A stretch of DNA of 64,000 nt from Verrucomicrobia bacterium IMCC26134. GTDB taxonomy: Bacteria > Verrucomicrobiota > Verrucomicrobiia > Opitutales > Opitutaceae. Every line of letters begins with the position of its first letter. Position 1 is the first letter of the stretch. The notes beneath the pieces were generated by a model. That model was not told where the DNA came from. It worked only from the letters and a program-made list of their open reading frames with translations, and made no database searches. Shown here one piece after another: positions 3,993 to 60,136 of the stretch. The position numbers were made by a program, and so were the translations under genes. Location: contig CP011265.1 of NCBI GenBank assembly GCA_000972765.1, positions 3,407,001-3,471,000 of the forward strand, read 5' to 3'.

Positions 3993-5099
3993 TCAAGCAC
4001 CCAACCAGGCGTCTATGGCCGTGCTAACCGCCAGCATCTCCTCGTCGGTGCCGATACTGATGCGCAAAAAACTCGCGGTGAGCGGGTGGCTTGCAAAGGC
4101 GCGGACCAAGATGCGTCGCGAGACAAAGAAATCGTAGAGTGACTTGGCGACGGCGGGGCCGGTTTCACCTTTAGCGTTTTTAGGCTCGGTAAAGAGGAAG
4201 TTGGCCTGGCTCTCATAGGTAAACCAACCGCGCGTGCCAGAGAGTTCACTAAACCAATAATCCCGGGTGCGGATGATCTTCCCGATGATAGCATCGTAGT
4301 AAGCACCATCGGAGAGCGCAGCAAAGGCCCCTGCCTGGCTGAGGCGATTCACGTTGTAGCTATCGCGCACCCGGTCCAGCAGATCGATGACCTCGGGATG
4401 GGCGAGACAGTAACCCACACGCAAGCCGGCGAGCCCCTGAGCCTTGGAGAGCGAGCGGGTGATCACAAGGCGCGGATGCGCGGCAAGAAGGGCCACTGCA
4501 TTTTCACGCGCAAAGGGCGCGTAGGTCTCGTCCAGCACGAGCACACCGGGGAAACGGGCGAGCAGGGCGGCGATCTCCGTGTTTGAAAAACCGATACCAG
4601 TGGGGGCGTTGGGCGAGGTCAGGAAGCAGGCACGGGCAGGCGTGGCCGCGAGCGCCTCGACAGGCAGTTTCATCGAGCGGTCGAAGGGCACTGGCACGGA
4701 GCGACCGTCCTGGATAGCGATGAGCACGGGGTAGAGCGAATAGCTGGGGAGGGTGTAAGCGGTCGGCGCGGCGGGCCCTCCAAAAACGCGGACGAGAAGA
4801 TTAAGCGCATCGTCAGAGCCGTTGCCGATCAGGACATTTTGCTCCGTAAGACCGTGGCTGTGAAGACTGGCCACGAGCTGACGCAAAGGCGCGGCCTTGG
4901 GATTTGGGTAGAGGCGCAGTTTTTCACCGCCACCGGTCAACTCAGCCGTGATGGCGGCGGCGGCGCGAGGGCTGGGTGGATAAGGACACTCGTTGGTATT
5001 GAGCTTAACCCATCCAGGCTCAGTGGGTTGCAAGCCGGGGGTATAGGCTTGCATGGAAGCAACGTGCGGGCGGGCGAGGGACTGAAGTTCGGATGACAT
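3993..5099 (-). CDS. hisC: Histidinol-phosphate aminotransferase
   Basis: PLP enzyme of fold type I that transfers an amino group from glutamate to imidazole acetol phosphate. The 368-residue sequence shows the substrate loop KLNTNECPYPPSP (32-44), the phosphate-cup motif IGNGSDDALN (91-100), the N/D pair in TSPNAPTG and VLDETYAPF (about 161-195), and the Schiff-base lysine K219 in TRSLSKAQGLAGLRVGY. The C-terminal FLRISIGT is the usual arginine that binds the substrate phosphate. It follows hisD by 108 bp, a gap that holds a weak CCCCT...AGGGG hairpin which could modulate distal expression. Confidence 0.96.
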   Translation of the reverse strand: MSSELQSLARPHVASMQAYTPGLQPTEPGWVKLNTNECPYPPSPRAAAAITAELTGGGEKLRLYPNPKAAPLRQLVASLHSHGLTEQNVLIGNGSDDALNLLVRVFGGPAAPTAYTLPSYSLYPVLIAIQDGRSVPVPFDRSMKLPVEALAATPARACFLTSPNAPTGIGFSNTEIAALLARFPGVLVLDETYAPFARENAVALLAAHPRLVITRSLSKAQGLAGLRVGYCLAHPEVIDLLDRVRDSYNVNRLSQAGAFAALSDGAYYDAIIGKIIRTRDYWFSELSGTRGWFTYESQANFLFTEPKNAKGETGPAVAKSLYDFFVSRRILVRAFASHPLTASFLRISIGTDEEMLAVSTAIDAWLGA

Positions 5100-5207
5100 C
5101 GGTGTAATCGTGCTCGTTTATCTATAACAGTTCCATTCTCAGAAAGCCTAAATCCCCCTGAATAAATTAGGGGAATGAAAGCAAACCGAACTGAGCAGGG
5201 GAATGCG

Positions 5208-6503
5208 TCAGAGGGCGCGAATCTTCACACTGCGACCATGGGCATCGAGACGTTCCATTGCCGCAAAGGCGGCGACCACGGGGGCGGCCTTCTTGATGGA
5301 GGCTTTGTCGTATTTGATCAGACTCGTCCGACGCATGAAATCGGCGATCCGCAGGCCACTGAAGAAACGCCCAGCTCCACCGGTGGGCAGCACGTGACTG
5401 GGGCCGGCGGTAAAATCCCCGACGGCGGTAGGCGTGTAGTTGCCGAGCATAATCGCTCCGGCAGTGGTAACACTTTTAAGCAACGTCTTCTGCAGCGACT
5501 CTTTTACGAGCAGTTCCAGATGCTCGGGGGCGACGAAATTAGCGGTGTGCGCGATTTCCTCGGCGTTCTTGGCGACAATGCCAATCCAGCCCGCGGCGAG
5601 CACGCGATGTATTTTTTCCGCGCGAGTCACAAACTTGATTTGGTTTTGCACCTCGGCGCGAATGTCCTCGAGCAGCTCAGCGGAGGTGGCGACCAGATAG
5701 ATCTTCTCCCGTCCTGAACCGTGTTCAGCCTGGGCGATAAGATCAGAGGCGGCAAAGCTCAGGTCGGCGGATTCATCGCAAACCACCATGATCTCGCTGG
5801 GGCCGGGCAATGAATCGACACCGACCGTGCCGAAAACCTGCCGCTTGGCCTCGCAAACGTAGGCGTTGCCCGGACCAAAGATTTTATCGACCGGTAAAAT
5901 GCTCAAGGTGCCATAAGCGGCGGCGGCAATCGCCTGCACTCCACCAATGCAGTAGACCTCGTCTATCCCCACAAGATGAAGGGCCGCAAGAGTGCCGTCG
6001 GATACTTTTCCCGACGGATTGGAAGGGGTAAAAACCGCAATCTGCGGACAGCCAGCCAGCTTGGCCAAGGTGGCGGTCATAAGCACCGTCGAGACAAGCG
6101 GCACCTCACCACCCGGGACATAGAGCCCGACGCGGCGGATAGGATGATACAACTCGCCAACCGTCGCGCCGTGGGGATTCTTGGCCTGCCAATCCTTGGG
6201 CAGGCTCTTTTCATGAAATGCAACAATGCTATCATGCGCGGCCTTGAGCGCCTTCATGTCAGCAGCCGGCAGCTTCTTGGCTGCAGCCGCGATATCGCTC
6301 GCCTTGATACGGAAATCGCGCGCGCGAAGCTTGGCGCCGTCGAACTTGGCGGCATAGTATCCCACTGCTTCGTCACCCCTGTGGCGAACATCCGCCAAGA
6401 TGGCGGCCACACTGTCATGTATCTCCTTTGGAACCGTGGAACCGCGACAATAGACCGCTAGTTCAGACTCAAAGGTTTTGGAAGCAGACTGGAGAACACG
6501 CAC
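5208..6503 (-). CDS. hisD: Histidinol dehydrogenase
   Basis: Zinc- and NAD-dependent two-step oxidation of histidinol to histidine, the last step of the pathway. Family motifs: VGLYVPGGEVPLVSTVLM, PGNAYVCEAKRQVFG, GPSEIMVVCDE, the zinc and catalytic segments IAQAEHGSGREK, NFVAPEHLELLV and AGPSHVLPTGGAGRFFSGL. I chose the GTG at 6503, which gives 431 residues as usual for the family (about 430). An ATG at 6602 would add 33 residues beginning MCCHTF that show no similarity to HisD. It is the first gene of the local his run (hisD-hisC-hisB-hisH). The start is uncertain, the function is not. Confidence 0.95.
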   Translation of the reverse strand: MRVLQSASKTFESELAVYCRGSTVPKEIHDSVAAILADVRHRGDEAVGYYAAKFDGAKLRARDFRIKASDIAAAAKKLPAADMKALKAAHDSIVAFHEKSLPKDWQAKNPHGATVGELYHPIRRVGLYVPGGEVPLVSTVLMTATLAKLAGCPQIAVFTPSNPSGKVSDGTLAALHLVGIDEVYCIGGVQAIAAAAYGTLSILPVDKIFGPGNAYVCEAKRQVFGTVGVDSLPGPSEIMVVCDESADLSFAASDLIAQAEHGSGREKIYLVATSAELLEDIRAEVQNQIKFVTRAEKIHRVLAAGWIGIVAKNAEEIAHTANFVAPEHLELLVKESLQKTLLKSVTTAGAIMLGNYTPTAVGDFTAGPSHVLPTGGAGRFFSGLRIADFMRRTSLIKYDKASIKKAAPVVAAFAAMERLDAHGRSVKIRAL

Positions 6504-6677
6504 GGCAGTTGGGTTTTTAGACGAAAAGTCCAGGTGACAACAAAGTGTCAAAGCTAGCGAAGTTAGTCCTCCGTGCGAGCCGGAAAACGTGTGGCAGCAC
6601 AAAGATCACAACCGATGGCCCCCGATTGTAAGCAAGCGTGCGTATAAATCAGTCTCCATCTCCAACCGCTAAAGGAT

Positions 6678-7433
6678 TCAAGGCATCGCCAAACTCGGAA
6701 TCACAAAAAGCGTATCAGGCAACTTCGGATTAACGGTTATCTCGTTATAGGTAATAGTGATAATGCGTTTAGAGCCATTGGGCAATATGCTACTAGTGAC
6801 GATACGCTGGGGGAATCGGAGGCTACCTGCGCGGATCTCACCGTATTCGCGAATTTCACTTCCATTGTCGGTTTCAGTCAGAATCAGCCTGCCGGTTCTA
6901 CGATCGAAACTACGGACAAAGATCACATTGGACGCATGAATAAATGCGATCTTGATACAGTCTACGCCATCCACCTTGGCCTTCCCGCGATCTTCTATTC
7001 TACCGCCAACACTTGAGATGCCGCGATAAAATGAAATGTTTTCGAAGGTATTCGCCCTTAAACGCTTGATAGAGTCACGACCGAGCAGGCTGACACGGGG
7101 AGTAGATTTTTTATCCGTAACAGCCTCCACTTGCCAGGCTTCGTAACCATTGAGCGCAGTGGTTTCGATCTTTGCTGGAGTGGTTGCTATGATGAGTTGC
7201 CTATCAGGCTGTTGAAAAATGATTTCCAGTTTCGCTGTGATCGGAGCCAACGACTTTCCTTCGGCAACGGAAAGCTCCCCCCTGAAGCGCAAGGCGCGAA
7301 CCACCGCCAAATCAGCCTCAGAACCTAAGTATCCCCGCGCCTTATTTATAATAGCGTCATCTGCACGGGTCGAACTAATGGCCCAAAACAAAATCACAGG
7401 GGATACCAAAAGAATACGAAAGAAGAGTGCCAT
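6678..7433 (-). CDS. Exported protein of unknown function
   Basis: 251 residues with a clear Sec signal peptide (MALFFRILLVSPVILFWAISSTRA, cleavage near residue 24). The mature part is beta-rich with alternating hydrophobics: ITAKLEIIFQQPDRQLI, YEAWQV, KVDGVDCIKIAFIH, FDRRTGRLILTETDNGSEIREYGE and RIITITYNEITVNPKLPDTLFVIP. The series 'modified-by-field / Asp-Gly-X-X / D-x-x-T-G-x-L / Y-x-E' resembles periplasmic LolA-fold and outer-membrane lipoprotein-sorting-like proteins common in this phylum, but the match is by eye only. It lies between guaA and hisD on the same strand with about 100 and 170 bp spacing, so an operon is not obvious. Confidence 0.65.
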   Translation of the reverse strand: MALFFRILLVSPVILFWAISSTRADDAIINKARGYLGSEADLAVVRALRFRGELSVAEGKSLAPITAKLEIIFQQPDRQLIIATTPAKIETTALNGYEAWQVEAVTDKKSTPRVSLLGRDSIKRLRANTFENISFYRGISSVGGRIEDRGKAKVDGVDCIKIAFIHASNVIFVRSFDRRTGRLILTETDNGSEIREYGEIRAGSLRFPQRIVTSSILPNGSKRIITITYNEITVNPKLPDTLFVIPSLAMP

Positions 7434-50287: not shown

Positions 50288-50623
50288 ATGCCCGCCCACC
50301 TGCAGATCCTCGCCCAGCTGGCCGGTCCGGCCGAGTCCATCTTTGGCGTGGGGTTGGGAGTGGCTGTGGGTATTTTCATGCTCTGCATGACCGTGGTCGG
50401 AGCAGGCCTCGCCCTGCTCGCCTTCTGGATCTGGATGCTCATCGACTGCGCCCAGGCCCCCGAAAACCCTTCCGAAAACCGGGTCGCCTGGATTCTCATC
50501 CTGGTGTTCACCCACTGGCTCGGTGCCTTGCTGTATTTCTTCATCGTGCGCCAGCCCCGGCAAGCCCGGCTCCGCGCCGCCACCGCCTCGACTTCGCCGC
50601 CTTTCCCTTCATCGGTTCGCTGA
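50288..50623 (+). CDS. PLDc_N-type small membrane protein
   Basis: 111 residues with two membrane helices (FMLCMTVVGAGLALLAFWIW and VAWILILVFTHWLGALLYFF). The WMLIDCAQAPENPSEN loop and LGALLYFFIVRQPR match the two-helix module found at the N-terminus of cardiolipin synthases and as free-standing proteins. It has no catalytic residues. It lies 15 bp after lemA and 22 bp before the M48 gene. Confidence 0.8.
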   Translation: MPAHLQILAQLAGPAESIFGVGLGVAVGIFMLCMTVVGAGLALLAFWIWMLIDCAQAPENPSENRVAWILILVFTHWLGALLYFFIVRQPRQARLRAATASTSPPFPSSVR

Positions 50624-50645
50624 GCATACGGCCCCGTCCCGTCGC

Positions 50646-52598
50646 ATGGATTTCTTCGAAGCCCAGGCCCACGCCCGCCGCCGCTCCGGCCGGCTCGTCG
50701 TTCTATTCCTCCTCGCCTTCCTGGGCACCATTACCGCGACTTATTTCGCCGCGCTGGCCATCGCGAGCTTCGCCCAGCCGGGCCTGCTTCACGACTCCGC
50801 CTTCGAGGTGGCCGGCGTCCCTCTCTGGCAACCGGACCTTCTTTCCGGCGTGGTCTTGTTCAACCTGCTCGTGGTCGGCGGCGCCTCGCTCTATAAATGG
50901 TCCCAGCTCCGCGCCGGCGGCTCCGCCATCGCCGAGCTCGTCGGCGGGCGCGAGGTCCGGCCCAACAGCCTCGATCTGCGCGAGCTCAAGCTGCTCAATG
51001 TCGTCGAGGAGATGGCCCTCGCCTCGGGCGTGCCGGTGCCGGCCGTTTACGTCCTGCCCGACGAGCCCGCCATCAACGCCTTCGCCGCCGGCTACGCCCC
51101 GGCCGACGCCGCCGTCGTCATCACCCGGGGCACTCTGGAGCGCCTCACCCGCGACGAGCTCCAGGGGGTCGTCGCCCACGAGTTCAGCCACATCCTCAAC
51201 GGCGACATGCGGACCAACACCCGCATCACCGCCCTCGTCTACGGCATTCTCGCCCTCGCCCTGCTCGGCGGCGCCATCCTGCGCGGCCTCTCGCGCACCC
51301 GCGTATCCAGTTCTTCGAGACGCGACGGCAAGGGCTCGGGCGGCTTCATCGTCGTGCTTCTCGCCATCGGCGTCGCCCTTCTGGTCATCGGCTACATCGG
51401 CTACTTCTTCGGCCGACTCATCCAGGCCGCCGTCTCGCGCCAGCGCGAGTTCCTCGCCGACGCCTCCGCCGTGCAGTTCACCCGCAACCCGGCCGGCATC
51501 GGCGGCGCCCTGCGCAAACTCGGCGGACTCGCGCTGCACGGCCATCTCACCCACGATCAGGCCGGCCAGGTCAGCCACTTTTGCTTCGCCCAGAGTTTCC
51601 ACAGCTCCTTCGGCGAACTCTTCGCCACCCACCCTCCCCTCGATGAGCGCATCCGCGCCATCGACCCCGCCTTCGACGGCACGTTCATCAGCCCGCCGAC
51701 CGTCGTGATCGACGAGACCCGGTTCGGCGCGCCGCCGCCCCTCCCGCCCCGCTCTGCAGCCTCCGCCGGACTCGCCCCCGCCGCCCTGCTCCAGTCCATC
51801 GGCACCCTGAGCGCCGCTTCCGTCGCCCAAGCCCGCGACACCATAGACGCCCTCCCCGCCTCCCTGCGCGACGCCACCCGCGACCCCGCCCAAGCCTCCG
51901 CCTTGCTCTGCGCCCTGCTGCTCACCCCCGCCGCCGACGCCGCCCAGCGCACCACCCAAGCGGAACTCATCGCCCGCCACACCGACGACCGCACCGCCGC
52001 TCTCGCCGTGTCCTTCGCCAGCGAGCTCGCCGCGCAACCCGGTTCGCTGCGCCTGTCTCTGCTTCAACTCAGCGCGCCCGCCCTGCGCAACCTTTCCGCC
52101 GCCGAGCTCGACCGCCTGCTCGAAGCCCTCGACGCCCTCGTCCACGCCGACGAGCGCATCACGCCCTTCGAATTTGCCCTCCAGAAAGTCATCGCCCGCA
52201 CCCTCGGTCTCGCCGCCCACCCGTTCTCCGCCCTTGGCACCGTGGCCCCCAGCCAGGTCGCAGCCGAGCTCTCCGTGCTGCTCTCCACCGCCGCCCAGCT
52301 CGACGCCGCCACCGCCGAGGCCGCCACCCGCGCCTTCAGCCGCGCCGCGCGCGATTTCAACGGTCTTAATCCCCCGCTCAGGTTGATCGCCGCCGACACC
52401 GCCACCCTCGCCCACCTCGACCACGCCCTCGACCGCCTCGCCCTGACTCCGGCGCCGTTCAAAAAACGCATCCTCGCCGCCGTCGCCACCGCCCTCACCG
52501 CCGACAACCACCTCACCCTTCCCGAAGCCGAACTTTTACGCGCCCTCTGCGCCGCGCTCGACTGCCCCATGCCCGCCGTGCCAGAACTAACTGCGTGA
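50646..52598 (+). CDS. M48-family membrane metallopeptidase with a C-terminal helical domain
   Basis: 650 residues from the ATG at 50646 (MDFFEAQAHARRRSG); an upstream extension in the same frame overlaps the previous gene and is a shadow. Helices lie near 16-40, 55-80, 195-215 and 230-260. The zinc site is HEFSH (about 178-182, in VVAHEFSHILNGDM) with the third ligand in EFLAD (about 267-271), the ExxAD motif. Residues about 390-650 form an Ala-rich helical part with LDALVHADERITPFEFALQK and VATALTADNHLTLPEAELLR, which resemble TerB-type repeats. It is probably an envelope-quality protease of HtpX type acting with LemA; GTGA overlap with the NERD gene. Confidence 0.9.
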   Translation: MDFFEAQAHARRRSGRLVVLFLLAFLGTITATYFAALAIASFAQPGLLHDSAFEVAGVPLWQPDLLSGVVLFNLLVVGGASLYKWSQLRAGGSAIAELVGGREVRPNSLDLRELKLLNVVEEMALASGVPVPAVYVLPDEPAINAFAAGYAPADAAVVITRGTLERLTRDELQGVVAHEFSHILNGDMRTNTRITALVYGILALALLGGAILRGLSRTRVSSSSRRDGKGSGGFIVVLLAIGVALLVIGYIGYFFGRLIQAAVSRQREFLADASAVQFTRNPAGIGGALRKLGGLALHGHLTHDQAGQVSHFCFAQSFHSSFGELFATHPPLDERIRAIDPAFDGTFISPPTVVIDETRFGAPPPLPPRSAASAGLAPAALLQSIGTLSAASVAQARDTIDALPASLRDATRDPAQASALLCALLLTPAADAAQRTTQAELIARHTDDRTAALAVSFASELAAQPGSLRLSLLQLSAPALRNLSAAELDRLLEALDALVHADERITPFEFALQKVIARTLGLAAHPFSALGTVAPSQVAAELSVLLSTAAQLDAATAEAATRAFSRAARDFNGLNPPLRLIAADTATLAHLDHALDRLALTPAPFKKRILAAVATALTADNHLTLPEAELLRALCAALDCPMPAVPELTA

Positions 52599-53488
52599 GT
52601 CCTCTACTTTACATCTTCGGCTTCCTCGCTCTCTTCACCGGCATCTGCGTAGTAGCGCTTTTCATCCGCCAACGCGGGCGCCAAGACCGCGCACCCTTTC
52701 CTGAAAACACCCGCCTTCTCCGCGCCCCGGGCGAGTCGGTCCGCCGCAAACTCGCCCAAATGGACGAGTCCTTCGATACCCTTTTCGCCGCCGCCTGCCT
52801 GCTTCCTCTGCTGCTCGCCTCGGGAACCGCCGCCTTGCTCACTCTCGTCTTTTCAGCTCAACACTGGCTTACGTTTGCCGCCGTCGCGATCGTTTGGATT
52901 TCGCCCGGCACCTATCTCAGCCGACGCCTGCTCGCCCTAGCCGACCGCCGCCGCAACACCGCCCTCGGCTACTTCGGAGAACTCGCCGTCGCCGAGGCGC
53001 TCGATCCGCTCAAGGCCACCGGCCACCGCGTTTTCCATGATGTCCCCGGCGACGGCCCCGCCGGCAAGGCCTTCAACCTCGACCACGTCGTCGTCGGCCC
53101 CGCCGGCGTCTTCGCCATCGAGACCAAGACCCGCCGCAAGGGCCGCGCCCGCACCGGCTTCATGGCCCACGAGATCATCTACGACGGTCGCGCCCTCTCC
53201 TACCCTTGGGGCGAAGACACCTTCGGCCTCGACCAGGCCCGCCGCCAATCCGAATGGCTCGCCGGTTTTCTCCAACAACAACTCGGCCGCACCGTGCCCG
53301 TCACCCCGCTGCTCGTCTTCCCCGGCTGGTTCATCATCCGCAAGGGCCTCGGCCCGGTCAACGTGCTCAACCCGCACGAACTCCCCGCCGCCATCGAGTC
53401 CCGCAACGCCGTCCCCGCCCTCGACCCCGCCGCCCTCGATCTCATCTCCCGCCAGCTCGAAGCCCGCTGCCGCGACGTGGAACTCTGA
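52595..53488 (+). CDS. NERD-domain membrane protein
   Basis: 297 residues, GTG start overlapping the previous stop by 4 bases. It has an N-terminal helix (LLYIFGFLALFTGICVVALF), a two-helix region (FAAACLLPLLLASGTAALLT and AAVAIVWISPGTYL), and then the nuclease-related NERD domain: LGYFGELAVAEAL (about 127-139), FNLDHVVVGPAGVFAIETKT (about 158-177) with the D/E-x-K pattern, and a later LLVFPGWFII. NERD domains resemble restriction-type nucleases but their function is unsettled. Last gene of the lemA operon, convergent with the restriction-like gene at 53530. Confidence 0.88.
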   Translation: MSPLLYIFGFLALFTGICVVALFIRQRGRQDRAPFPENTRLLRAPGESVRRKLAQMDESFDTLFAAACLLPLLLASGTAALLTLVFSAQHWLTFAAVAIVWISPGTYLSRRLLALADRRRNTALGYFGELAVAEALDPLKATGHRVFHDVPGDGPAGKAFNLDHVVVGPAGVFAIETKTRRKGRARTGFMAHEIIYDGRALSYPWGEDTFGLDQARRQSEWLAGFLQQQLGRTVPVTPLLVFPGWFIIRKGLGPVNVLNPHELPAAIESRNAVPALDPAALDLISRQLEARCRDVEL

Positions 53489-53529: not shown

Positions 53530-56070
53530 TCAGGTTTTCGCCACCACCGTATCATACAGCCCGTAATGCGTCAGCCCCTCGTGGCTCGCGATGCCCGTAT
53601 AGCTTAACGACGCATCTTCGTAACGCCGGAAGGCGAACACCGCCTGGTTCATCTGCTCGGTGTTAAAGACCCGCAGCCGCACCAGCAGGTGAAAATCCTT
53701 CACCGTCAACCCCGTCACCGTCTCAAACAGCTCCGGTTCGATCTTGGTGATCACGTCTTGCAGCGTGTTCTCCCGGAAATCGGTCAGATACATGAAGGCC
53801 GGGATGCGGGTCGCGAATTTGATGAGCTTTTCCTGCACCAGCTTTCGCTTGGATTTGAACTCTTTCTCCTCCGCGCTGAGCTCCTTTTTTTCCTTCGGCG
53901 ACAAGTCCTTGTCCTTCGCCTTGTTCTTCAGGTCTTTGACCGCCTCGCTCTTGTTGATGATGGTTTCGATGATGTTGTCGCCGAGCGCGCGCCACCCTTC
54001 GATGCGCTCCACCGCCGCCATCGCCTCGGGGTTATCCAGAATACGGCGCAGCGTGTCGTTGTCCACGTTCACCAGCAGAGCGCTCTCCCACTTGCGCGCG
54101 AGCAGCGTGGCCGAGGTGCCGGCGATCGCGATGTCGAGGATGCCGCCCGCATCGATCTGCGTCATGTTCGCCCCGTCGTAGGCCAGCACGGGCAAAAACG
54201 ACACGAGCTCCCGCACCGCGTTCTCCGGATTCGGTTCGTTGGGCGAGAGGCCGATCGCGTATTCCGACAACTGGCGCAGCGCGCGCGTGGGCGCGAAATC
54301 GAACACGAAACACACCGGCTTCAAAATCTCCTCTTCGTGCGGGTTGTCGCCGTTCGGGTTCTTGATCGACCATGGCGACTGCACCCGAAACGCCGCCTGA
54401 AAATACGTCTCCGGCGATTTTAGGTTTCGCAGCATCAAAATGGACGACCACTGCGGCACGGTGACGCCCGTGGTGAGTTTCCCGCACGAGAGCGTGATCG
54501 TCTTCGTGGCGAATCCGCCGCCGATCGCCCGGCGCACCGGGGGCAGGGCCTCCAGCCCGATGCCCGCGTCGGCCCCGGCCGCGACAATCACCGTGTAGTC
54601 GCGCCAGAAGACGTTGTGCTGCTCGGCCAGCAGATTCGCCATCGCGCGACACGCCGCCACGTCGGGCAAAAACCAGAACGCGTGCTGGAGATACGGCAGC
54701 AGGCGCACGTCGGAATACGGAAAGGGCGGCCGCGTGCCGGTCTTGAGCGATTCCACCGACTTGGACGCGTGATCGCCCCGGATGATTTCCAACCACTTTT
54801 GCACGTCGCTCTTGTGCTTGAACTGCGCCTTCGTGCCCACGCCCGCGGCCTCGAAAAACGCGTTCAGATCAAACTCTTCGAACTCGCCCGAACTCGCCAC
54901 CGCCACCAGTTCGTCCGGCATCTGGTAGGTGAGCAGCCGCATCTGCGGCATCGCCCCGTAGGGATTCCACTTGCCGGGATGCTGGGTCGCGAACGCCTCC
55001 TTGGCCCGCTGTTCGTCGGTGTAGGTCCAATTAAAAATCTGCTCCTCGATAAACTCTCCCGAAGCGAGCGCTTTGAAGGGCGTGCCGGAGAGGTAGAGGT
55101 AGGCCTTGGTCGTGATGGGCAGGAACTCCGCTTCCTTGGTCGAGAGTTCGCCCAAATCCTCGTTCACGTTTTCCAGACCGGGCGCGTATTCGAGCTTGGT
55201 CTCTTTTTTGGCGACCGCCTCCTCCTCGCCCTCGAACAACTCCTTGGCGGTGTCGCGCCACGCGCCGAAGTGGTATTCGTCAAACACCACCAAGTCCCAA
55301 TTCACTGCATGCAGCCATTCGTTCTTGGGCTTGATATTCCCGGCCGCGTCGCGCCCCAGCAAATCCTGAAAAGAACCGAAATAGACCACCGGTTTTTTGC
55401 GGTCGATCTGCGTGGGATCGCCGCCGGAGGCTTTTGACAGGTATTGCCACCCGTCAAAGTCCGCGTGCGACTCGAGATCCGTCTGCCACGCGTCTTCCAC
55501 CGCCGGCTTAAACGTCACCACCAGCACACGTTTGGCCCCGAGCTTTTTGGCCAGTTGGTAGCTGGTGAACGTTTTCCCGAAGCGCATCTTCGCGTTCCAG
55601 AGGAAGCGGGGCACCGCGTGCATGTTCTCCTTCCACAGGGAGTGGAAGTAAGCGTGCGTCTTATCTACCGCGACGCGCTGCTCGGCGCGCGGCGCGAAGG
55701 TTTCGTGGTGCGTGCCCGACAGCTTCTTGCCCGTTCGCAGCTCGATCAGGACGGACTTCACGTCTTTCACCGTGCAGCGCATCCACTCCAGCGATGCGTT
55801 TTTAAGCCCCTTCTTCGCCAGGGCCGCGCGCACCGCGTGGTCGCTGAAAATCGTGCCATCCTCACGCTCGGCGGATTCGTCGAGGACGATGGTGTAGTTC
55901 TGGATCGCCGCCGTCTTGAGCTGCTCGGCCACCCGTTGCTTTACGTCGCGCGTGGTCTGCCCGATTTTGAGCAACCCCGCGTGCGCCTTGTCCGCGATGG
56001 AGTAAGCGTAAATGCGCGGCCGAGCCTCCAGCTTCGGAGAGAGGATTTCGTCGATGGTTGGTTTACTCAT
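53530..56070 (-). CDS. GIY-YIG nuclease fused to superfamily 2 helicase (restriction-like subunit)
   Basis: 846 residues. Residues about 20-100 form a T5orf172/MUG113-like GIY-YIG domain: RIYAYSIADKAHAGLLKIGQ, then the conserved Arg region RDVKQRVAEQL and a later Glu-rich segment. The helicase follows: motif I KMRFGKT (161-167), motif II DEYH (264-267), motif III LSGTPFKA near 333, motif VI QAAFRVQSPW near 575. A charged coiled-coil stretch (LSPKEKKELSAEEKEFKSKR, about 745-775) precedes a C-terminal domain. It is the last gene of methylase-methylase-helicase order and overlaps the large methylase by 8 bp. By analogy to type III/ISP restriction subunits it would translocate and cut unmodified DNA; the nuclease at the N-terminus is unusual. 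Confidence 0.85.
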   Translation of the reverse strand: MSKPTIDEILSPKLEARPRIYAYSIADKAHAGLLKIGQTTRDVKQRVAEQLKTAAIQNYTIVLDESAEREDGTIFSDHAVRAALAKKGLKNASLEWMRCTVKDVKSVLIELRTGKKLSGTHHETFAPRAEQRVAVDKTHAYFHSLWKENMHAVPRFLWNAKMRFGKTFTSYQLAKKLGAKRVLVVTFKPAVEDAWQTDLESHADFDGWQYLSKASGGDPTQIDRKKPVVYFGSFQDLLGRDAAGNIKPKNEWLHAVNWDLVVFDEYHFGAWRDTAKELFEGEEEAVAKKETKLEYAPGLENVNEDLGELSTKEAEFLPITTKAYLYLSGTPFKALASGEFIEEQIFNWTYTDEQRAKEAFATQHPGKWNPYGAMPQMRLLTYQMPDELVAVASSGEFEEFDLNAFFEAAGVGTKAQFKHKSDVQKWLEIIRGDHASKSVESLKTGTRPPFPYSDVRLLPYLQHAFWFLPDVAACRAMANLLAEQHNVFWRDYTVIVAAGADAGIGLEALPPVRRAIGGGFATKTITLSCGKLTTGVTVPQWSSILMLRNLKSPETYFQAAFRVQSPWSIKNPNGDNPHEEEILKPVCFVFDFAPTRALRQLSEYAIGLSPNEPNPENAVRELVSFLPVLAYDGANMTQIDAGGILDIAIAGTSATLLARKWESALLVNVDNDTLRRILDNPEAMAAVERIEGWRALGDNIIETIINKSEAVKDLKNKAKDKDLSPKEKKELSAEEKEFKSKRKLVQEKLIKFATRIPAFMYLTDFRENTLQDVITKIEPELFETVTGLTVKDFHLLVRLRVFNTEQMNQAVFAFRRYEDASLSYTGIASHEGLTHYGLYDTVVAKT

Positions 56071-57688
56071 CGGCGGCAGCCCCGCTCAAGTCCATCGGGC
56101 GGACAACTTTTTCGATGAAGGTGATTTCTTCCTCGGTGATTCCGTATTTCCTGTAGAGATCTTCGTCCGTCCACCGCTTATTCCAATTCTGCGTTGGCAC
56201 GAACGTATAGACCTTGCGAGTCGTGTCCTGGGATGGCTTGTGCAGAAGAATTAGGAGGCGCGTCAGACGACACGAAAGATAGGACAAGGCGCTCTCCGCC
56301 TCGTTTTCGGAGTCGAACGGGCCAATGCATAGATAGGTCTCCGACGAGATGGTGCCCGGCTCACCGATGAATGGAGTGCTGATGATTCTGTGCGGATAGG
56401 TATCTCTGTTTCCGGTCCCCGGAGCTGCCCGGCCGACATATATCTTCCACTTGTCGATGAGATGCGCGCTCATCGAGATTTCGTTTCCGGCTATGTATGC
56501 CTTCCCGCCGTTCTGGTAGACCATCACGTCACCGGGCGACTTTGCCGTCTTCCCTTTGAATGTTGTTTCTAGCCCGAACGGCTTTCTTGAACTGACCAAT
56601 TGCTCGAAACGCTGAGCCTCAGGCAGAGATAACGAATCGGGTTGCCCACTTTCAACAGCGGCAACCTTTCTGAGAATCGACAGCCCTTCATTGAAGCGGA
56701 TGAATACGTCCACGCCCTCTTCAAGAAGCGAGCGACTGGCCGTTGAGTCAGGCCAGTCCTTGAAATGAGTGGTGACGCGGCATTGCCCAGAATGATCCCG
56801 GTCCCAGAGGAAGAAACAGACGCCGCCCTTAAGGCCCACTCCGGGAAAAACGTCCGCCGCACTGAGGTAGTCGTCAATCGAGCGCAGGCGATCATCAGCC
56901 AGCATCGATTCTCTAAATTCATCCAGACCCTTGCCGCCGGCGAACCACCGCGCGGGAATGACCATCGAAAGGTATCGCGGGCCTAACGCCTTTGCTTGCG
57001 CGACGAAGTTATGATAAATGGGCGCTGCGCTGGTTCCAAAACCATCATCGCTCAGTTGATACGGGGGGTTGCCGATGATAACGTCGAATTGCATATTTTT
57101 CCCGAAAAGTTCGGCCAGTCGGGCCTTGATGTTGTCGGCGTGAATGAACGCATAGGCGTGGGTCTCCAAATCTTTGCCCCGGTCAAAAACGGCACGTGCA
57201 GCGCCGCAGAATTTGCACCGGTCGCCGTCCCACGTGTGCTTGATACGCTTAAACCAAATATTGCCGGACTCGTTGGTGAAGATTTTGGCGATCGAATGCT
57301 GCCCGTTGGCGTGCTTGGAACAATACACGCTCCGGCGGGCGAGCAGGCTGGTGATCTGCGTGATCCCGATGCCGAACACCTGCTTCGTCAGGATGTGGTT
57401 CACCCGCTGCTCCAGATTCGGTATCGTTTTCTCTAACCCTTCGGTCAGACGGCGGGTGATCTCGCGCAGAAACACACCCGACTTCGTGCAGGGGTCGAGA
57501 AAGGTCACTTTCGGGTCGGCCCACAAATTCGCCCCCTGGTGATTCGCCGCCCACGCCTCCGAGAGTGTGTCGAGCATCCGGTTGGCGAACTCCGGCGGTG
57601 TGAACACCTCGTCGTTGGAGAGGTTGGCAATGCACGTCAGCACGTCCGGATTGCGCCGGCGCAGGGTAAAGCTGGCTTGTTCGCTCAC
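56063..57688 (-). CDS. Eco57I-type N6-adenine DNA methyltransferase
   Basis: 541 residues of gamma-class layout: SAM-binding motif I FLDPCTKSGVFL (63-74), catalytic motif IV GNPPYQL with NPPY at 207-210, VFTPPEFANRMLDTL before motif I, and a long C-terminal target-recognition part (GGKAYIAGNEISMSAHLIDK, AAPGTGNRDTYPHRII). A CxxC at 158-161 (DRCKFCGAA) with a nearby His suggests a small zinc knuckle. It overlaps the small methylase by 4 bp and the helicase by 8 bp, so the three are coupled. It should protect host DNA at the system's site. Confidence 0.9.
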   Translation of the reverse strand: MSEQASFTLRRRNPDVLTCIANLSNDEVFTPPEFANRMLDTLSEAWAANHQGANLWADPKVTFLDPCTKSGVFLREITRRLTEGLEKTIPNLEQRVNHILTKQVFGIGITQITSLLARRSVYCSKHANGQHSIAKIFTNESGNIWFKRIKHTWDGDRCKFCGAARAVFDRGKDLETHAYAFIHADNIKARLAELFGKNMQFDVIIGNPPYQLSDDGFGTSAAPIYHNFVAQAKALGPRYLSMVIPARWFAGGKGLDEFRESMLADDRLRSIDDYLSAADVFPGVGLKGGVCFFLWDRDHSGQCRVTTHFKDWPDSTASRSLLEEGVDVFIRFNEGLSILRKVAAVESGQPDSLSLPEAQRFEQLVSSRKPFGLETTFKGKTAKSPGDVMVYQNGGKAYIAGNEISMSAHLIDKWKIYVGRAAPGTGNRDTYPHRIISTPFIGEPGTISSETYLCIGPFDSENEAESALSYLSCRLTRLLILLHKPSQDTTRKVYTFVPTQNWNKRWTDEDLYRKYGITEEEITFIEKVVRPMDLSGAAADE

Positions 57689-58329
57689 GTGACCGCCTCC
57701 GGCGCGGCAGCGGCCAACTCGCCCACCGTCATCGGCGGGTAGGTTTTGGCCGCCGTAAAAATCTCGTGCATGCCAAGATTGGCGAAAAGCGAGTCCGCCG
57801 CACTAAAGGCCGAGGACTGGGTGAGGTTATCGAAACGGAAGTCGCGCCGCTGAAACCGGCCTTTGCCCAAGTAACCCCACTCAGCAAAAGTGATCGGCTC
57901 GGCGGCGTGGGTGCGCATGGTCAGCGCGTCGCCGTGGACGAGGTTTTGCGCCAGCACGTAAAACCCGGCGCGATACAGGTCGTCCGTGGGCGCCAGACCG
58001 AGATATTCGGCGAAAATCGCCAGCAAGTGGGCGCGACACTCGACGATGTTGTCCGGCAGCAGCTCGATGCCATAGACGCACATGAGCCCCAGCAGGGCGA
58101 AGTGCCGTTTCTCAAAGTCGGATTTGCCGTAATCCAGCTGCACGCGGGCGAGTTTGCGCCGTAGAATCTGCACCAGGAAGTTACCATCTCCGCAGGCCGG
58201 CTCGAGGAAACGTGAGTCGATACGCTCGGTCTCGCCCTTCACCAAATCGAGCATGGCCTCGACCATCCACGCGGGTGTGAAGACCTCCCCGTGATCGGCA
58301 ACGCGCTGCTTAGATTTCACTAAACTCAT
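57685..58329 (-). CDS. Small N6 methylase-like subunit lacking the catalytic motif
   Basis: 214 residues: VADHGEVFTPAWMVEAMLDL and motif I RFLEPACGDGNFLVQILRRK (40-58) place it in the N6-adenine methylase superfamily; VYGIELLPDNIVECRAHLL follows. No NPPY motif occurs, and the C-terminal third (FQRRDFRFDNLTQSSAFSAA) is not methylase-like. It would bind SAM but probably not transfer methyl groups alone; a structural or specificity partner of the next gene, or a shortened paralogue, are the options. It is the first gene of the operon, divergent from the XRE regulator. Confidence 0.82.
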   Translation of the reverse strand: MSLVKSKQRVADHGEVFTPAWMVEAMLDLVKGETERIDSRFLEPACGDGNFLVQILRRKLARVQLDYGKSDFEKRHFALLGLMCVYGIELLPDNIVECRAHLLAIFAEYLGLAPTDDLYRAGFYVLAQNLVHGDALTMRTHAAEPITFAEWGYLGKGRFQRRDFRFDNLTQSSAFSAADSLFANLGMHEIFTAAKTYPPMTVGELAAAAPEAVT

Positions 58330-58348
58330 TCAGCCAGCCACTACGCAC

Positions 58349-58398
58349 TACCGAAAGAGGGGTGTAAAGAACCCACTAACATTAGGGGGGTGTCGGTA
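58349..58398. promoter_or_regulatory. Candidate operator between the methylase operon and the XRE gene
   Basis: The 95-bp divergent spacer holds two direct GGGGTGT boxes 28 bp apart (58359-58365 and 58387-58393), framed by TACCG (58349-58353 region) and CGGTA (58394-58398) in inverted orientation. Repeated boxes upstream of a small XRE gene are what controller proteins of restriction systems bind; here this is inference from position. Confidence 0.45.
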
Positions 58399-58424
58399 AA
58401 ATCGGCCTGTCGCTATGATTACTC

Positions 58425-58733
58425 GTGGCAAACGACTTCACGAAGCGCCTCTTGGTGCGCATAAGAACACTCCGAGAGGCACAGGGCCTCAGTCAGGAGA
58501 CATTTGCCGAACTCGCAGGCCTGAAATATAAACACTATCAGGCAATCGAAGCCGGTCGAAAACCGAAGTTCCAGCTCCCAACCCTGATCAAGATCGCCGA
58601 AGCACTAGATTTGGAGCCTTGGGAGCTCCTCAACTTCGACGTCGAGCCCCCTGTCTTGGCCGATAAGGGTAAACCGAGCGGAGCGAAAAAAGGCCGGGCC
58701 GTTTCCAAGACCAATCATACCAATCGCCCGTAA
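58425..58733 (+). CDS. XRE-family regulator (controller-like)
   Basis: 102 residues from a GTG start. An HTH_XRE domain fills residues 7-70: LVRIRTLREAQGLSQETFAE, LAGLKYKHYQAIEAGRKPKF and LIKIAEALDLEPWELL. It is divergent from the methylase/helicase operon, the usual place of a C-protein that times methylase and nuclease expression. The last codons (THTNRP-like, ending TCGCCCGTAA) lie inside the first copy of the 150-bp repeat, so the present stop was supplied by the repeat. Confidence 0.88.
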   Translation: MANDFTKRLLVRIRTLREAQGLSQETFAELAGLKYKHYQAIEAGRKPKFQLPTLIKIAEALDLEPWELLNFDVEPPVLADKGKPSGAKKGRAVSKTNHTNRP

Positions 58734-58951: not shown

Positions 58952-60136
58952 TTATTTCTCCAGCCAGCGGGCGGCGGGGGTGGAGAGGAACTCCTCCAAT
59001 GAAATGCCGTCGGCTCCCACGAGCAGCGTGCGGAGGGGGGCGAACTCGCGACGAAAGGCTTCCATGCCCTCCAGCGAGCCGCGCCGGCCGGCGCTCTTTA
59101 CCTCGATCGCGATGAGCGTCTTGCCGCGCTGGAGCACGAAATCGACCTCCGCATTGCGCTCCCGCCAGTAAGTCACCTCGATCGGCGTGCCGAGCGTGCT
59201 GCTCATCAGGTGCGCCCCCACGGCCGACTCCACCAAACGGCCCCAACGATCTGATTCCCGGCGGGTTTCCTCAAAACCCAGGCCGGAAGAGGTGCTCATG
59301 AGCGCGGTGTTTAAAACCTGCAGTTTGGGACTGGAGCCGCGTTGGCGAATCTTACCGCCGGCAAATTTAGACAGGCCCGCCACCATGCCCGCTCCTTGTA
59401 AAAGTTGCAGGTAATGGGCGAGCGTCACGGTGTTGCCGGCATCAGTGAGCTGGCCGGTCATTTTCTGGTAGGACAAAATCTGTCCCGAGTAGTCGCACGC
59501 GAGTTGAAAGAGGCGACGCAGGAGCGCGGGTTTGTCCACGCGGGTCATGAGCAAGATATCGCGGGAGATACTCGTCTCGATCAGCGAATCCACGACGTAG
59601 CGTTGCCATCGCTCGGGATCGGAGATCAGAGGGGCGGCACCGGGATAGGCTCCGTAGTAAATGAACTGCTCCACATCCCACCCAAAGGCTTCGTGAATCT
59701 CCGGGAACGACCAATGCGGCACCGGGATGATCTCGAACCGGCCCGCCAGGCTTTCGGTCAATCCGCTTTGGATGAGCAAGGGGGAGGAGCCAAGGAGCAC
59801 GACCCGCAAGGGGGTGTTGGCGTGGGTATCCGCGTCCCAAAGTTGCTTCACGGCCTCCGACCAGCCTTGGACCTTTTGAACTTCATCCAAGACAAGAAGA
59901 GCCTCGCCCCGGCGCGCGTTTAAGCGACCGAGTTCCCACTGCTGGGAGATCCATTCACGGCCTTTCAGCGCGGGCTCGTCGGCGGAGGCGTAGTGGGAGA
60001 TGGCGGTGACACTTGCCATGACTTGGCGGGCCAAGGTCGTTTTGCCCACCTGACGAGGACCGGCGAGCACTTGGATAAACCGTCTAGGCTCTTGTAAGCG
60101 ATTGAGCAACAGGAGGTGGAGGACTTTTCTAATCAT
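58952..60136 (-). CDS. AAA ATPase with DUF4143 domain
   Basis: 394 residues: Walker A AGPRQVGKTTLA (25-36), Walker B ALLVLDEVQKVQ (79-90), then the DUF4143 part with YLQLLQGAGMVAGLSKF (about 240-256) and a PD-(D/E)xK-like core NAEVDFVLQRGKTLIAIEVK (about 326-345). Such proteins are widespread, often mobile or toxin-linked, and biochemically uncharacterised. The gene is bracketed by the two 150-bp repeats and preceded by a palindromic operator 7 bp from its ATG, which suggests autoregulation. Confidence 0.9.
   Translation of the reverse strand: MIRKVLHLLLLNRLQEPRRFIQVLAGPRQVGKTTLARQVMASVTAISHYASADEPALKGREWISQQWELGRLNARRGEALLVLDEVQKVQGWSEAVKQLWDADTHANTPLRVVLLGSSPLLIQSGLTESLAGRFEIIPVPHWSFPEIHEAFGWDVEQFIYYGAYPGAAPLISDPERWQRYVVDSLIETSISRDILLMTRVDKPALLRRLFQLACDYSGQILSYQKMTGQLTDAGNTVTLAHYLQLLQGAGMVAGLSKFAGGKIRQRGSSPKLQVLNTALMSTSSGLGFEETRRESDRWGRLVESAVGAHLMSSTLGTPIEVTYWRERNAEVDFVLQRGKTLIAIEVKSAGRRGSLEGMEAFRREFAPLRTLLVGADGISLEEFLSTPAARWLEK

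What the first reader, a model, noticed from the sequence alone, without database searches (positions are those of the whole stretch)
53530..58733. Restriction-like island with an N-terminal GIY-YIG nuclease fused to a helicase and two methylase-like subunits
Seen: XRE regulator divergent from a coupled operon of a motif-I-only methylase-like protein, an NPPY-bearing Eco57I-type methylase, and a T5orf172/GIY-YIG plus SF2 helicase fusion. Type III Res proteins carry a C-terminal PD-(D/E)xK nuclease; here the nuclease-like domain is N-terminal and of another fold. Inferred: a host-defence system in which the small subunit may supply specificity or SAM sensing. The gene set is probably recurrent but the mechanism appears not to be established.
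Basis: partly seen in the sequence, partly recalled or inferred. Interest (0 to 1): 0.82.

Follow-up and report, generated by a model that had tools for sequence, protein, structure and literature searches.

The report
Restriction system with shuffled methylase halves
A widespread bacterial anti-DNA (probably anti-phage) operon couples a motor-plus-nuclease protein to a DNA-marking enzyme whose cofactor-binding half and catalytic half appear to lie on different proteins and are re-shuffled between genes in relatives.

Summary
The three-gene operon and its divergent XRE regulator are real and correctly placed. The idea that the small protein M1 sets specificity fails: the variable region is in M2 and does not follow M1. 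M1 never shows NPPY but keeps the SAM-contact motifs. M2 has NPPY, but in all 108 unique full-length copies counted its SAM motif has Lys for Gly and its motif II acid is gone. In distant relatives the parts are re-cut: M1 is followed by M2's catalytic half while M2's N-half sits at the end of R, or the catalytic half is a gene of its own. I read it as an ATP-dependent, Type I/ISP-like restriction-modification system whose working methylase is probably composite (M1 SAM half plus M2 catalytic/TRD half), with M2's N-half an adaptor to R. No activity was tested.

The parts
58425..58733 (+). XRE/HTH regulator, 102 aa, controller-protein-like, divergent from the operon
   Evidence: PADLOC Control_protein 3.5e-11; homologue in 3 of 167 loci at E 1e-8; a divergent HTH gene, not compared with this one, also lies beside M1 in Treponema pTS1
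58343..58393 (.). two 23-nt direct repeats, starts 28 nt apart, in the divergent promoter region: likely operators of the regulator
   Evidence: (74% alike; 28-nt spacing also in L033 and L034), alignment of four loci
57685..58329 (-). M1, 214 aa: methyltransferase N-half (motifs X, I, II, III), no motif IV (NPPY)
58174..58203 (-). M1 motif I, EPACGDGNFL (residues 43-52)
   Evidence: E43, G47, G49 in 102 of 102 unique sequences
56063..57688 (-). M2, 541 aa: Eco57I-type methylase; N-half (about 1-195), catalytic half with NPPY plus variable region
57467..57496 (-). M2 motif I variant DPCTKSGVFL (residues 65-74) with Lys69 where Gly is expected
   Evidence: K69 in 108 of 108 unique sequences over 300 aa; Lys in 121 of 124 rows with the N-terminus, no motif found in 2, one row reads EPACGDGNFL
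57059..57070 (-). M2 NPPY (residues 207-210), catalytic motif IV
   Evidence: N207, P208, P209 108 of 108; Y210 107 of 108
56219..56788 (-). M2 variable region (residues 301-490), inferred target-recognition domain
53530..56070 (-). R, 846 aa: N-terminal T5orf172/GIY-YIG domain, SF2 motor, C-terminal helical region
55732..56016 (-). R GIY-YIG/T5orf172 domain (residues 19-113)
   Evidence: residue conservation; model pLDDT 82-91 over the blocks from residue 21 to 120
54232..55710 (-). R SF2 translocase core (residues 121-613): KMRFGKT, DEYH, SGT and QxxFR motifs

Best explanation
An ATP-dependent restriction-modification system that works like a Type I/ISP enzyme split over three genes. M1 and M2 together methylate adenine at a site chosen by M2's C-terminal variable region. 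R, recruited at unmethylated sites, is a double-stranded-DNA motor that cuts with its N-terminal GIY-YIG domain. The working methylase is probably composite: M1 supplies the SAM-binding half (motifs X-III), M2's C-half supplies NPPY and target recognition, and M2's own N-half is a degenerate SAM domain that serves as adaptor or docking part for R. The XRE protein controls the operon through tandem operators. Shown here: gene order, motif conservation and loss, location of the variable region, domain re-cuttings, wide distribution. Inferred: methylation, translocation, cleavage, the trans active site, the docking role, regulation.
For: Gene set kept in 63 of 66 loci. M1: none of 118 homologues (four of them partial) has [DNS]PP[YFW]. 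Residues matching the SAM contacts of CamA (Asp60 motif I, Asp114 motif II, Asp149 motif III; PMC8187626, one section read) are kept in M1: E43 102/102, E/D89 102/102, D134 92/102 (Asn in 10), Gly47 and Gly49 102/102. M2: Lys69 replaces the motif I Gly in 108/108; the motif II acid is Gly/Ala/Ser in 108/108; NPP in 108/108. M1 and M2's N-half are homologous (hhalign 97.4%, E 1.1e-11 over 58 columns). Catalytic half as its own 344-aa gene with NPPY at residue 9 or 11, and the N-half on R, in Treponema saccharophilum pTS1 and Arthrobacter FW305-BF8; in Arthrobacter M1 still reads EPAAGDGNFL while the N-half motif has decayed to DLFSTAGLF. PADLOC has a 348-aa profile matching only that half (PDLC03375, M2 198-527 to 8-343). 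Specificity: L040 and L141 share 98% R and 99% M1 but 30% M2 301-490. Nuclease: Tyr21 153/155 (2 gaps), Lys35 and Gly37 155/155, Arg46 154/155, Asp77 154/155, Glu95 155/155. Motor: SF2 motif residues invariant in 39 sequences; model matches Type ISP LlaBIII (Z 15.2, 386 aligned, 4.5 A, rank 23 behind other SF2 translocases). M1 model matches CamA (Z 9.5).
Against: In the window's layout M2's two halves are fused in normal motif order and could bind SAM despite the Lys. No complex was modelled and no activity shown. Foldseek gave M1 no match at E <= 0.001; VIA Z 9.5 is only a little above the best Z of 7 to 8 typical of models without a clear match. In re-cut relatives M1's motif I is itself changed (E-I/V-T/A/S-CGEAP; second Gly lost). 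In layout C the catalytic half has its own ATG behind AGGA-type bases in four of five loci, so fusion to M1 may not be obligatory. The GIY-YIG acid is Asp, not Glu, assigned by spacing only. In Bacillus subtilis the analogous DnmA-YeeB-YeeC set gave no restriction (PMC7261158, PMC9973331, passages). Two of 66 loci lack M1 (L061, L086), one lacks a recognisable M2 (L058), and of 22 viral-contig M1 loci with room, three lack R (L119, L129, L138).
Confidence: 0.55

Rival explanations
1. M2 is a complete, self-sufficient methyltransferase (its Lys-bearing motif I still binds SAM); M1 is an accessory that senses SAM or methylation state and switches R on or off. The system is otherwise the same ATP-dependent restriction-modification enzyme.
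For: M2 has motif X, a motif I-like loop with conserved Asp65 and Gly71, and NPPY in normal order. R-M2 fusions exist as one polypeptide (PDLC03626). M1 keeps a SAM-type motif.
Against: All 108 unique M2 sequences counted lack the motif II acid and have Lys for Gly. Relatives detach M2's N-half from its catalytic half, and in Arthrobacter that N-half loses even the Lys while M1 stays canonical.
Confidence: 0.27
2. The operon is a methylation system whose restriction side is weak, conditional or defunct, as proposed for Bacillus subtilis DnmA-YeeB-YeeC; it persists for gene regulation or mobile-element maintenance.
For: The nearest tested three-gene analogue with helicase and T5orf172 genes showed no effect on plasmid uptake in natural transformation (PMC7261158 passages) or on three phages (PMC9973331 passages).
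Against: R is the best conserved protein (mean pairwise identity 0.84 among copies at 75% or more, against 0.57 for M2), its nuclease and motor residues are invariant or nearly so, and it is kept with M1 and M2 in records of many phyla; a defunct nuclease would decay. PMC9973331 cites Vibrio crassostreae homologues whose deletion raised sensitivity to some phages (passage).
Confidence: 0.13
3. One reading: M1 is the specificity subunit.
For: It is a small separate subunit beside a methylase, as HsdS is in Type I (analogy only).
Against: M1 is uniformly conserved and does not vary with M2's variable region; pairs with 97-99% identical M1 have 29-30% identical M2 301-490.
Confidence: 0.02

Closest known systems
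Type ISP restriction-modification enzymes (LlaGI, LlaBIII)
   Same: SF2 translocase plus gamma-class adenine methylase plus target recognition in one system; R's motor model matches LlaBIII 4xqk (Z 15.2) and LlaGI 5ffj (Z 14.8), though generic SF2 translocases score as well. Plasmid relatives in lactic acid bacteria and enterococci fuse R and M2 into about 1450 aa.
   Different: Nuclease is GIY-YIG family, not the Mrr-like PD-(D/E)xK recalled for ISP; the methylase is a separate gene here; an extra half-methylase M1 lies beside it.
DnmA-YeeB-YeeC of Bacillus subtilis (MmeI-like methylase, helicase, T5orf172 protein)
   Same: Methylase, SF2 helicase and T5orf172 domain in one operon; proposed Type I-like restriction-modification set (PMC7261158, PMC9973331, passages seen).
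   Different: There the helicase and nuclease are two genes, the methylase is a complete MmeI relative, and the passages seen name no M1-like gene; here helicase and nuclease are fused, the methylase is Eco57I-type with a Lys motif I, and M1 is present.
PADLOC 'Type IIG' PDLC03626 and 'Type II methyltransferase' PDLC03375
   Same: PDLC03626 aligns R 156-776 (E 1.1e-32) and M2 22-526 (2.9e-39) as one 1359-aa protein; PDLC03375 aligns M2 198-527 (1.1e-53).
   Different: These are labels; they do not name M1, the GIY-YIG domain, the translocase or the split methylase. A 'Type IIG' enzyme needs no ATP motor (recalled).
Type III (Mod-Res)
   Same: Separate methylase and motor-nuclease genes.
   Different: Res nuclease is C-terminal PD-(D/E)xK (recalled); here N-terminal GIY-YIG, plus M1.
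Two-polypeptide C5 methylases M.AquI and M.EcoHK31I
   Same: An active methylase whose conserved motifs are divided between two chains (PMC3404938, passages seen).
   Different: Cytosine enzymes, split at other motifs; the passages tell of no spare pseudo-half and no re-shuffling onto a motor protein.

Membership tests
Type ISP restriction-modification | single polypeptide with N-terminal Mrr-like PD-(D/E)xK nuclease, motor, methylase, TRD (recalled) | tested here: not met
   three genes; N-terminal domain is T5orf172/GIY-YIG
Type ISP restriction-modification | SF2 double-stranded-DNA translocase | tested here: met
   ResIII Pfam hit, invariant motor motif residues, fold match to LlaBIII and LlaGI among other SF2 translocases; activity not tested
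Type III (Mod-Res) | Res subunit with C-terminal PD-(D/E)xK nuclease (recalled) | tested here: inconclusive
   Pfam finds none and finds an N-terminal T5orf172, but R's C-terminal part (640-846) is modelled only in part with confidence
Type I | separate HsdS specificity subunit | tested here: not met
   no further methylase-side gene in the operon; the variable region lies in M2 301-490
DnmA-YeeB-YeeC | complete MmeI-type methylase with separate helicase and T5orf172 genes | tested here: not met
   T5orf172 and helicase fused in R; M2 is Eco57I Pfam; description of the B. subtilis set from passages; its sequences were not fetched
GIY-YIG nuclease superfamily (T5orf172) | Pfam T5orf172 domain and the motif Tyr, Arg and acidic residue | tested here: met
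   PF10544 35.1 bits against cutoff 20; Y21, R46, D77 in 153, 154 and 154 of 155; the acid is Asp and was placed by spacing, not by structure. PF10544 reached E 0.01 in 25 of 39 aligned relatives. A T5orf172 protein (Odn) is a proven nuclease (PMC8263062, passages)
gamma-class adenine methyltransferase (M1 alone) | motif I for SAM and motif IV (NPPY) for catalysis in one chain | tested here: not met
   motif I met, motif IV not found in 118 of 118
Type IIG | one polypeptide, cleavage independent of ATP (recalled) | not testable with these tools
   PADLOC label only; biochemistry needed. Here R and M2 are separate genes
controller (C) protein-regulated restriction-modification | small HTH protein with tandem operator repeats upstream | tested here: met
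   Control_protein 3.5e-11; 23-nt repeats 28 nt apart, same spacing in L033 and L034; regulation itself untested

The most novel reading that the evidence does not exclude
A modular adenine methylase in three exchangeable pieces: a SAM-binding half (M1), a catalytic/target-recognition half (M2C) and a pseudo-SAM half (M2N) that acts as adaptor to a GIY-YIG translocase. The active site is assembled across two polypeptides, and the pieces have been re-cut between genes in at least four layouts, so that self-marking depends on correct assembly of the whole machine.
Probability: 0.5. Interest if true: 0.78.

Novelty: new variant of a known kind. Interest (0 to 1): 0.64.

Why it matters
If right, a common restriction-modification family now filed under Type II/IIG labels is an ATP-driven motor with a non-PD-(D/E)xK nuclease and a methylase active site built from two proteins. 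That would change how such loci are counted and annotated (M1 and free M2C genes would not be solitary or broken methylases), give a natural example of a DNA methyltransferase taken apart and re-shuffled, and offer a simple test (M2 with and without M1) plus a swappable specificity region for engineering.

Tried and rejected
M1 as specificity subunit: rejected on the variation profile. M1 as a broken gene: rejected, since it is conserved (mean pairwise identity 0.72) and present in 64 of 66 loci with room. Loss of GIY-YIG residues: rejected. Sequence relatives of known structure: none useful for R or M2, and only weak methylase hits for M1. Foldseek with M1 gave no E <= 0.001; the CamA match rests on VIA-align Z 9.5 and on motifs. 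Base composition as a sign of recent gain: not clear, since the whole window is 58.5% GC, R and M1 61%, M2 56%, gnd 64%. A viral-contig scan with the Treponema R found no relative. A first motif regex for M2 missed every copy because it was wrongly written; done again. Defence-island enrichment was not measured; neighbours were only read (for example TIR, DUF262, TcmP and toxin-antitoxin genes beside relatives). Recognition motif: not predicted. Papers that might describe the system: searches gave only the DnmA-YeeB-YeeC work as a close case; Morgan 2009 on the MmeI family is not held. The Enterococcus faecalis pTEF3 copy is broken beside an insertion sequence and the Corynebacterium crudilactis pCRULAC2 copy has transposons with resistance genes between M2 and R; these were described only.
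Full report
WHAT IS THERE. The window lies in a 4.0-Mb one-contig genome with one copy of R; its closest R relatives are Opitutae/Opitutaceae. On the minus strand, M1 (214 aa), M2 (541 aa) and R (846 aa) overlap by 4 and 8 nt; a 102-aa XRE gene is divergent. Pfam calls R a T5orf172 domain plus ResIII helicase and M2 an Eco57I methylase; M1 falls below every Pfam cutoff. The next gene, 58952-60136(-), is an AAA_14-DUF4143 ATPase.

ACQUIRED LOCUS. Beside gnd, in one same-genus and two same-family genomes, the 442-aa hypothetical gene is still found (in L188 with a 1404-aa open frame between), but tblastn at E 1e-5 finds no R, M2, M1, XRE, DUF4143, NERD or M48 gene in the 17.6-18.4 kb read (L188, L189, L191; a fourth stretch, L190, is only 2.3 kb). 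R is also absent from both same-genus and the 18 listed same-family genomes of a 288-genome sample of the phylum, in which 36 genomes, the window's own included, had a match at E <= 1e-10. Base composition is not a clear sign (window 58.5% GC, M2 56%, R and M1 61%, gnd 64%).

DISTRIBUTION. In a tree of 79 R sequences (window included) the labels include Pseudomonadota, Verrucomicrobiota, Acidobacteriota, Planctomycetota, Actinomycetota, Chloroflexota and Cyanobacteriota, and 18 phylum labels need 32 changes where 17 is the least possible; half of the inner branches are weak. Many records are binned MAGs, so single labels may be wrong. Plasmids of named bacteria agree: Sphingopyxis (83%), Rhizobium phaseoli (81%), Deinococcus wulumuqiensis (77%), Corynebacterium crudilactis (71%). 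Of 80 loci, 66 have at least 2.4 kb upstream of R; 63 have M1-M2-R on one strand, one lacks a recognisable M2 (L058) and two lack M1 (L061, L086); 15 of 15 viral-contig R loci with room have both. Starting from M1 in viral contigs, 22 of 28 loci have at least 4.5 kb downstream; 19 of the 22 have M2 and R, L129 has M2 without R, L119 has neither, and the M2 hit in L138 overlaps its own M1. In 14 of the 63 a gap over 300 bp separates two of the genes; in L097 this is a broken M2, in others it holds ORFs that look like DUF1016, KilA-N, RhuM, Fic and GxxExxY proteins (names from my reading of the sequences, not from a profile search).

R. In 155 locus sequences (29-100% identical, duplicates kept) the GIY-YIG-type positions are Tyr21 153 (2 gaps), Lys35 155, Gly37 155, Arg46 154, Asp77 154, Glu95 155, Trp96 154; among the 42 below 60% identity Arg46, Asp77 and Glu95 are 42 of 42. 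The YIG tyrosine is Lys and the metal acid appears to be Asp77. The Pfam T5orf172 model reaches E 0.01 in 25 of 39 relatives and ResIII in 38 of 39. The T5orf172 domain is a proven nuclease in Odn, where an E180A mutant does not cut (PMC8263062, passages). Motor motifs KMRFGKT, DEYH, SGT and QxxFR lie in invariant or nearly invariant columns of 39 sequences. The model of R is moderate (pLDDT 66). Its motor matches many SF2 translocases, among them LlaBIII over model residues 100-764 (Z 15.2, 386 aligned, 4.5 A).

SPECIFICITY LIES IN M2. Mean pairwise identity is 0.84 for R, 0.73 for M1, 0.71 for M2 1-300 and 0.42 for M2 301-490 over 75 loci (2775 pairs). Distances in M2 301-490 correlate with M2 1-300 (0.73) but not with R (0.00) or M1 (0.05). 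L040 and L141: R 98%, M1 99%, M2 1-300 72%, M2 301-490 30%; the window and L031: 94, 92, 78 and 32%. The methylase thus looks exchanged as a specificity cassette while M1 and R stay.

THE METHYLASE IS DIVIDED. M1 holds motif X (EVFTP), I (EPACGxGNFL), II (YGIE) and III (GDA), and NPPY was found in 0 of 118. Its model (pLDDT 86) is a half Rossmann fold with strands 1-3 and a hairpin. It aligns to SAH-bound CamA 7lt5 residues 10-160 (Z 9.5, 3.3 A, 134 aligned; in 7rfk the last aligned residue is 206); CamA's NPPY is at 165-168 (PMC8187626, passages). CamA's three SAM-binding acids, in motifs I, II and III (section read), correspond by motif to M1 E43 (102/102), E/D89 (102/102) and D134 (92/102, Asn in 10). 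M2 keeps D65 (108/108) and NPP (108/108) but has Lys69 for the first Gly (108/108) and Gly, Ala or Ser (69, 38 and 1) at the motif II acid. In the looser count, Lys stands in 121 of 124 rows, no motif was found in two, and one reads EPACGDGNFL, probably an M1 picked up as M2. M1 and M2's N-half are homologous (hhalign probability 97.4%, E 1.1e-11, 58 columns). M2 also has a conserved C123-H151-C158-C161 set that looks zinc-binding (105, 108, 106 and 107 of 108).

NATURAL RE-CUTTINGS. Profiles of R, M1 and M2 were run over distant loci (sequences read). Layout A (window): M1 | M2N-M2C | R. Layout B, the commonest distant form seen: M1 | R-M2N-M2C in one chain or open frame of about 1250-1600 aa (for example Lactococcus pUC047G, Enterococcus faecium p211b-a, Pediococcus pRS5); in L204 the M1 position is beyond the contig end and in L208 the end of M2C is in another frame. 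In Levilactobacillus brevis plasmid 2 M1 follows instead, as it does in the Lactobacillus amylolyticus copy, whose R-M2 frame is broken. Layout C: M1 then M2C in one open frame and R carrying M2N at its end (L193, L194, L196, L198, L248), or M1 | M2C | R-M2N as separate genes (Treponema saccharophilum pTS1; L192 with a 1.9-kb gap between M1 and M2C); L195 is like layout C but with M2C cut over two frames. Layout D: M1 | R-M2N | M2C (Arthrobacter FW305-BF8, with 8-nt overlaps; Lactiplantibacillus plantarum A8, which could be a mutated layout B). The free M2C begins 8 or 10 residues before NPPY. In layout C the internal ATG of M2C follows AGGA-type bases in four of five loci, so M2C may also be made on its own there. 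Outside layout A the Lys of M2N was seen in L162, L163, L192-L196, L198, L203-L205, L207, L210-L215, L248-L253 and L255; it is replaced (DLFSTAGLF) in Arthrobacter L254; L197, L199-L202, L206, L208 and L209 were not read for it.

READING. The re-cuttings put M1 next to the catalytic half and leave the Lys-bearing half with the motor. Together with the loss of SAM contacts in M2N and their retention in M1, they favour a composite active site M1+M2C, with M2N as adaptor to R. This is inference: no complex was modelled and no enzyme assayed. The rival, a self-sufficient M2 with M1 as a sensor, remains possible for layout A.

KNOWN OR NEW. PADLOC profiles already cover pieces under Type II/IIG names. 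The nearest described system in the held library is B. subtilis DnmA-YeeB-YeeC, which has different gene cuts, no M1 in the passages seen, and no detected restriction. The ten paper searches showed no account of this gene set or of its methylase layout; most subscription papers and REBASE were not searchable. I rate it a new variant of ATP-dependent restriction-modification.

Noticed in passing
window 58952-60136 (-): AAA_14-DUF4143 ATPase next to the operon, matching the PADLOC candidate defence family PDC-S01 at E 1e-173; not found beside gnd in three relatives.
   Followed up: partly
window 50523-53488 (+): M48 peptidase followed by a NERD (nuclease-related) domain protein, 67-71% GC, also not found beside gnd in three relatives.
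   Followed up: no
window 58343-58393: Two 23-nt direct repeats 28 nt apart between XRE and M1; 28-nt spacing also in L033 and L034, so likely controller-protein operators.
   Followed up: partly
L037, L049, L063, L064, L067, L072, L074-L076, L078, L091, L093, L101, L147 and others: Cargo ORFs (DUF1016-, KilA-N-, RhuM-, Fic- and GxxExxY-like by eye in several) inserted between M1, M2 and R, as I recall is usual in Type I loci.
   Followed up: partly
M2, window 57206-57322 (residues 123-161): Conserved C-H-C-C set between motifs II and IV of M2, probably a zinc site.
   Followed up: no
L119: M1 homologue (46%) in a viral contig with 6 kb downstream but no M2 or R found.
   Followed up: no
L253 (Enterococcus faecalis V583 pTEF3) 5053-6891: A copy of the R-M2 fusion with only a C-terminal 612 aa left downstream of an IS256 element; annotated simply as an Eco57I methylase.
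   Followed up: partly
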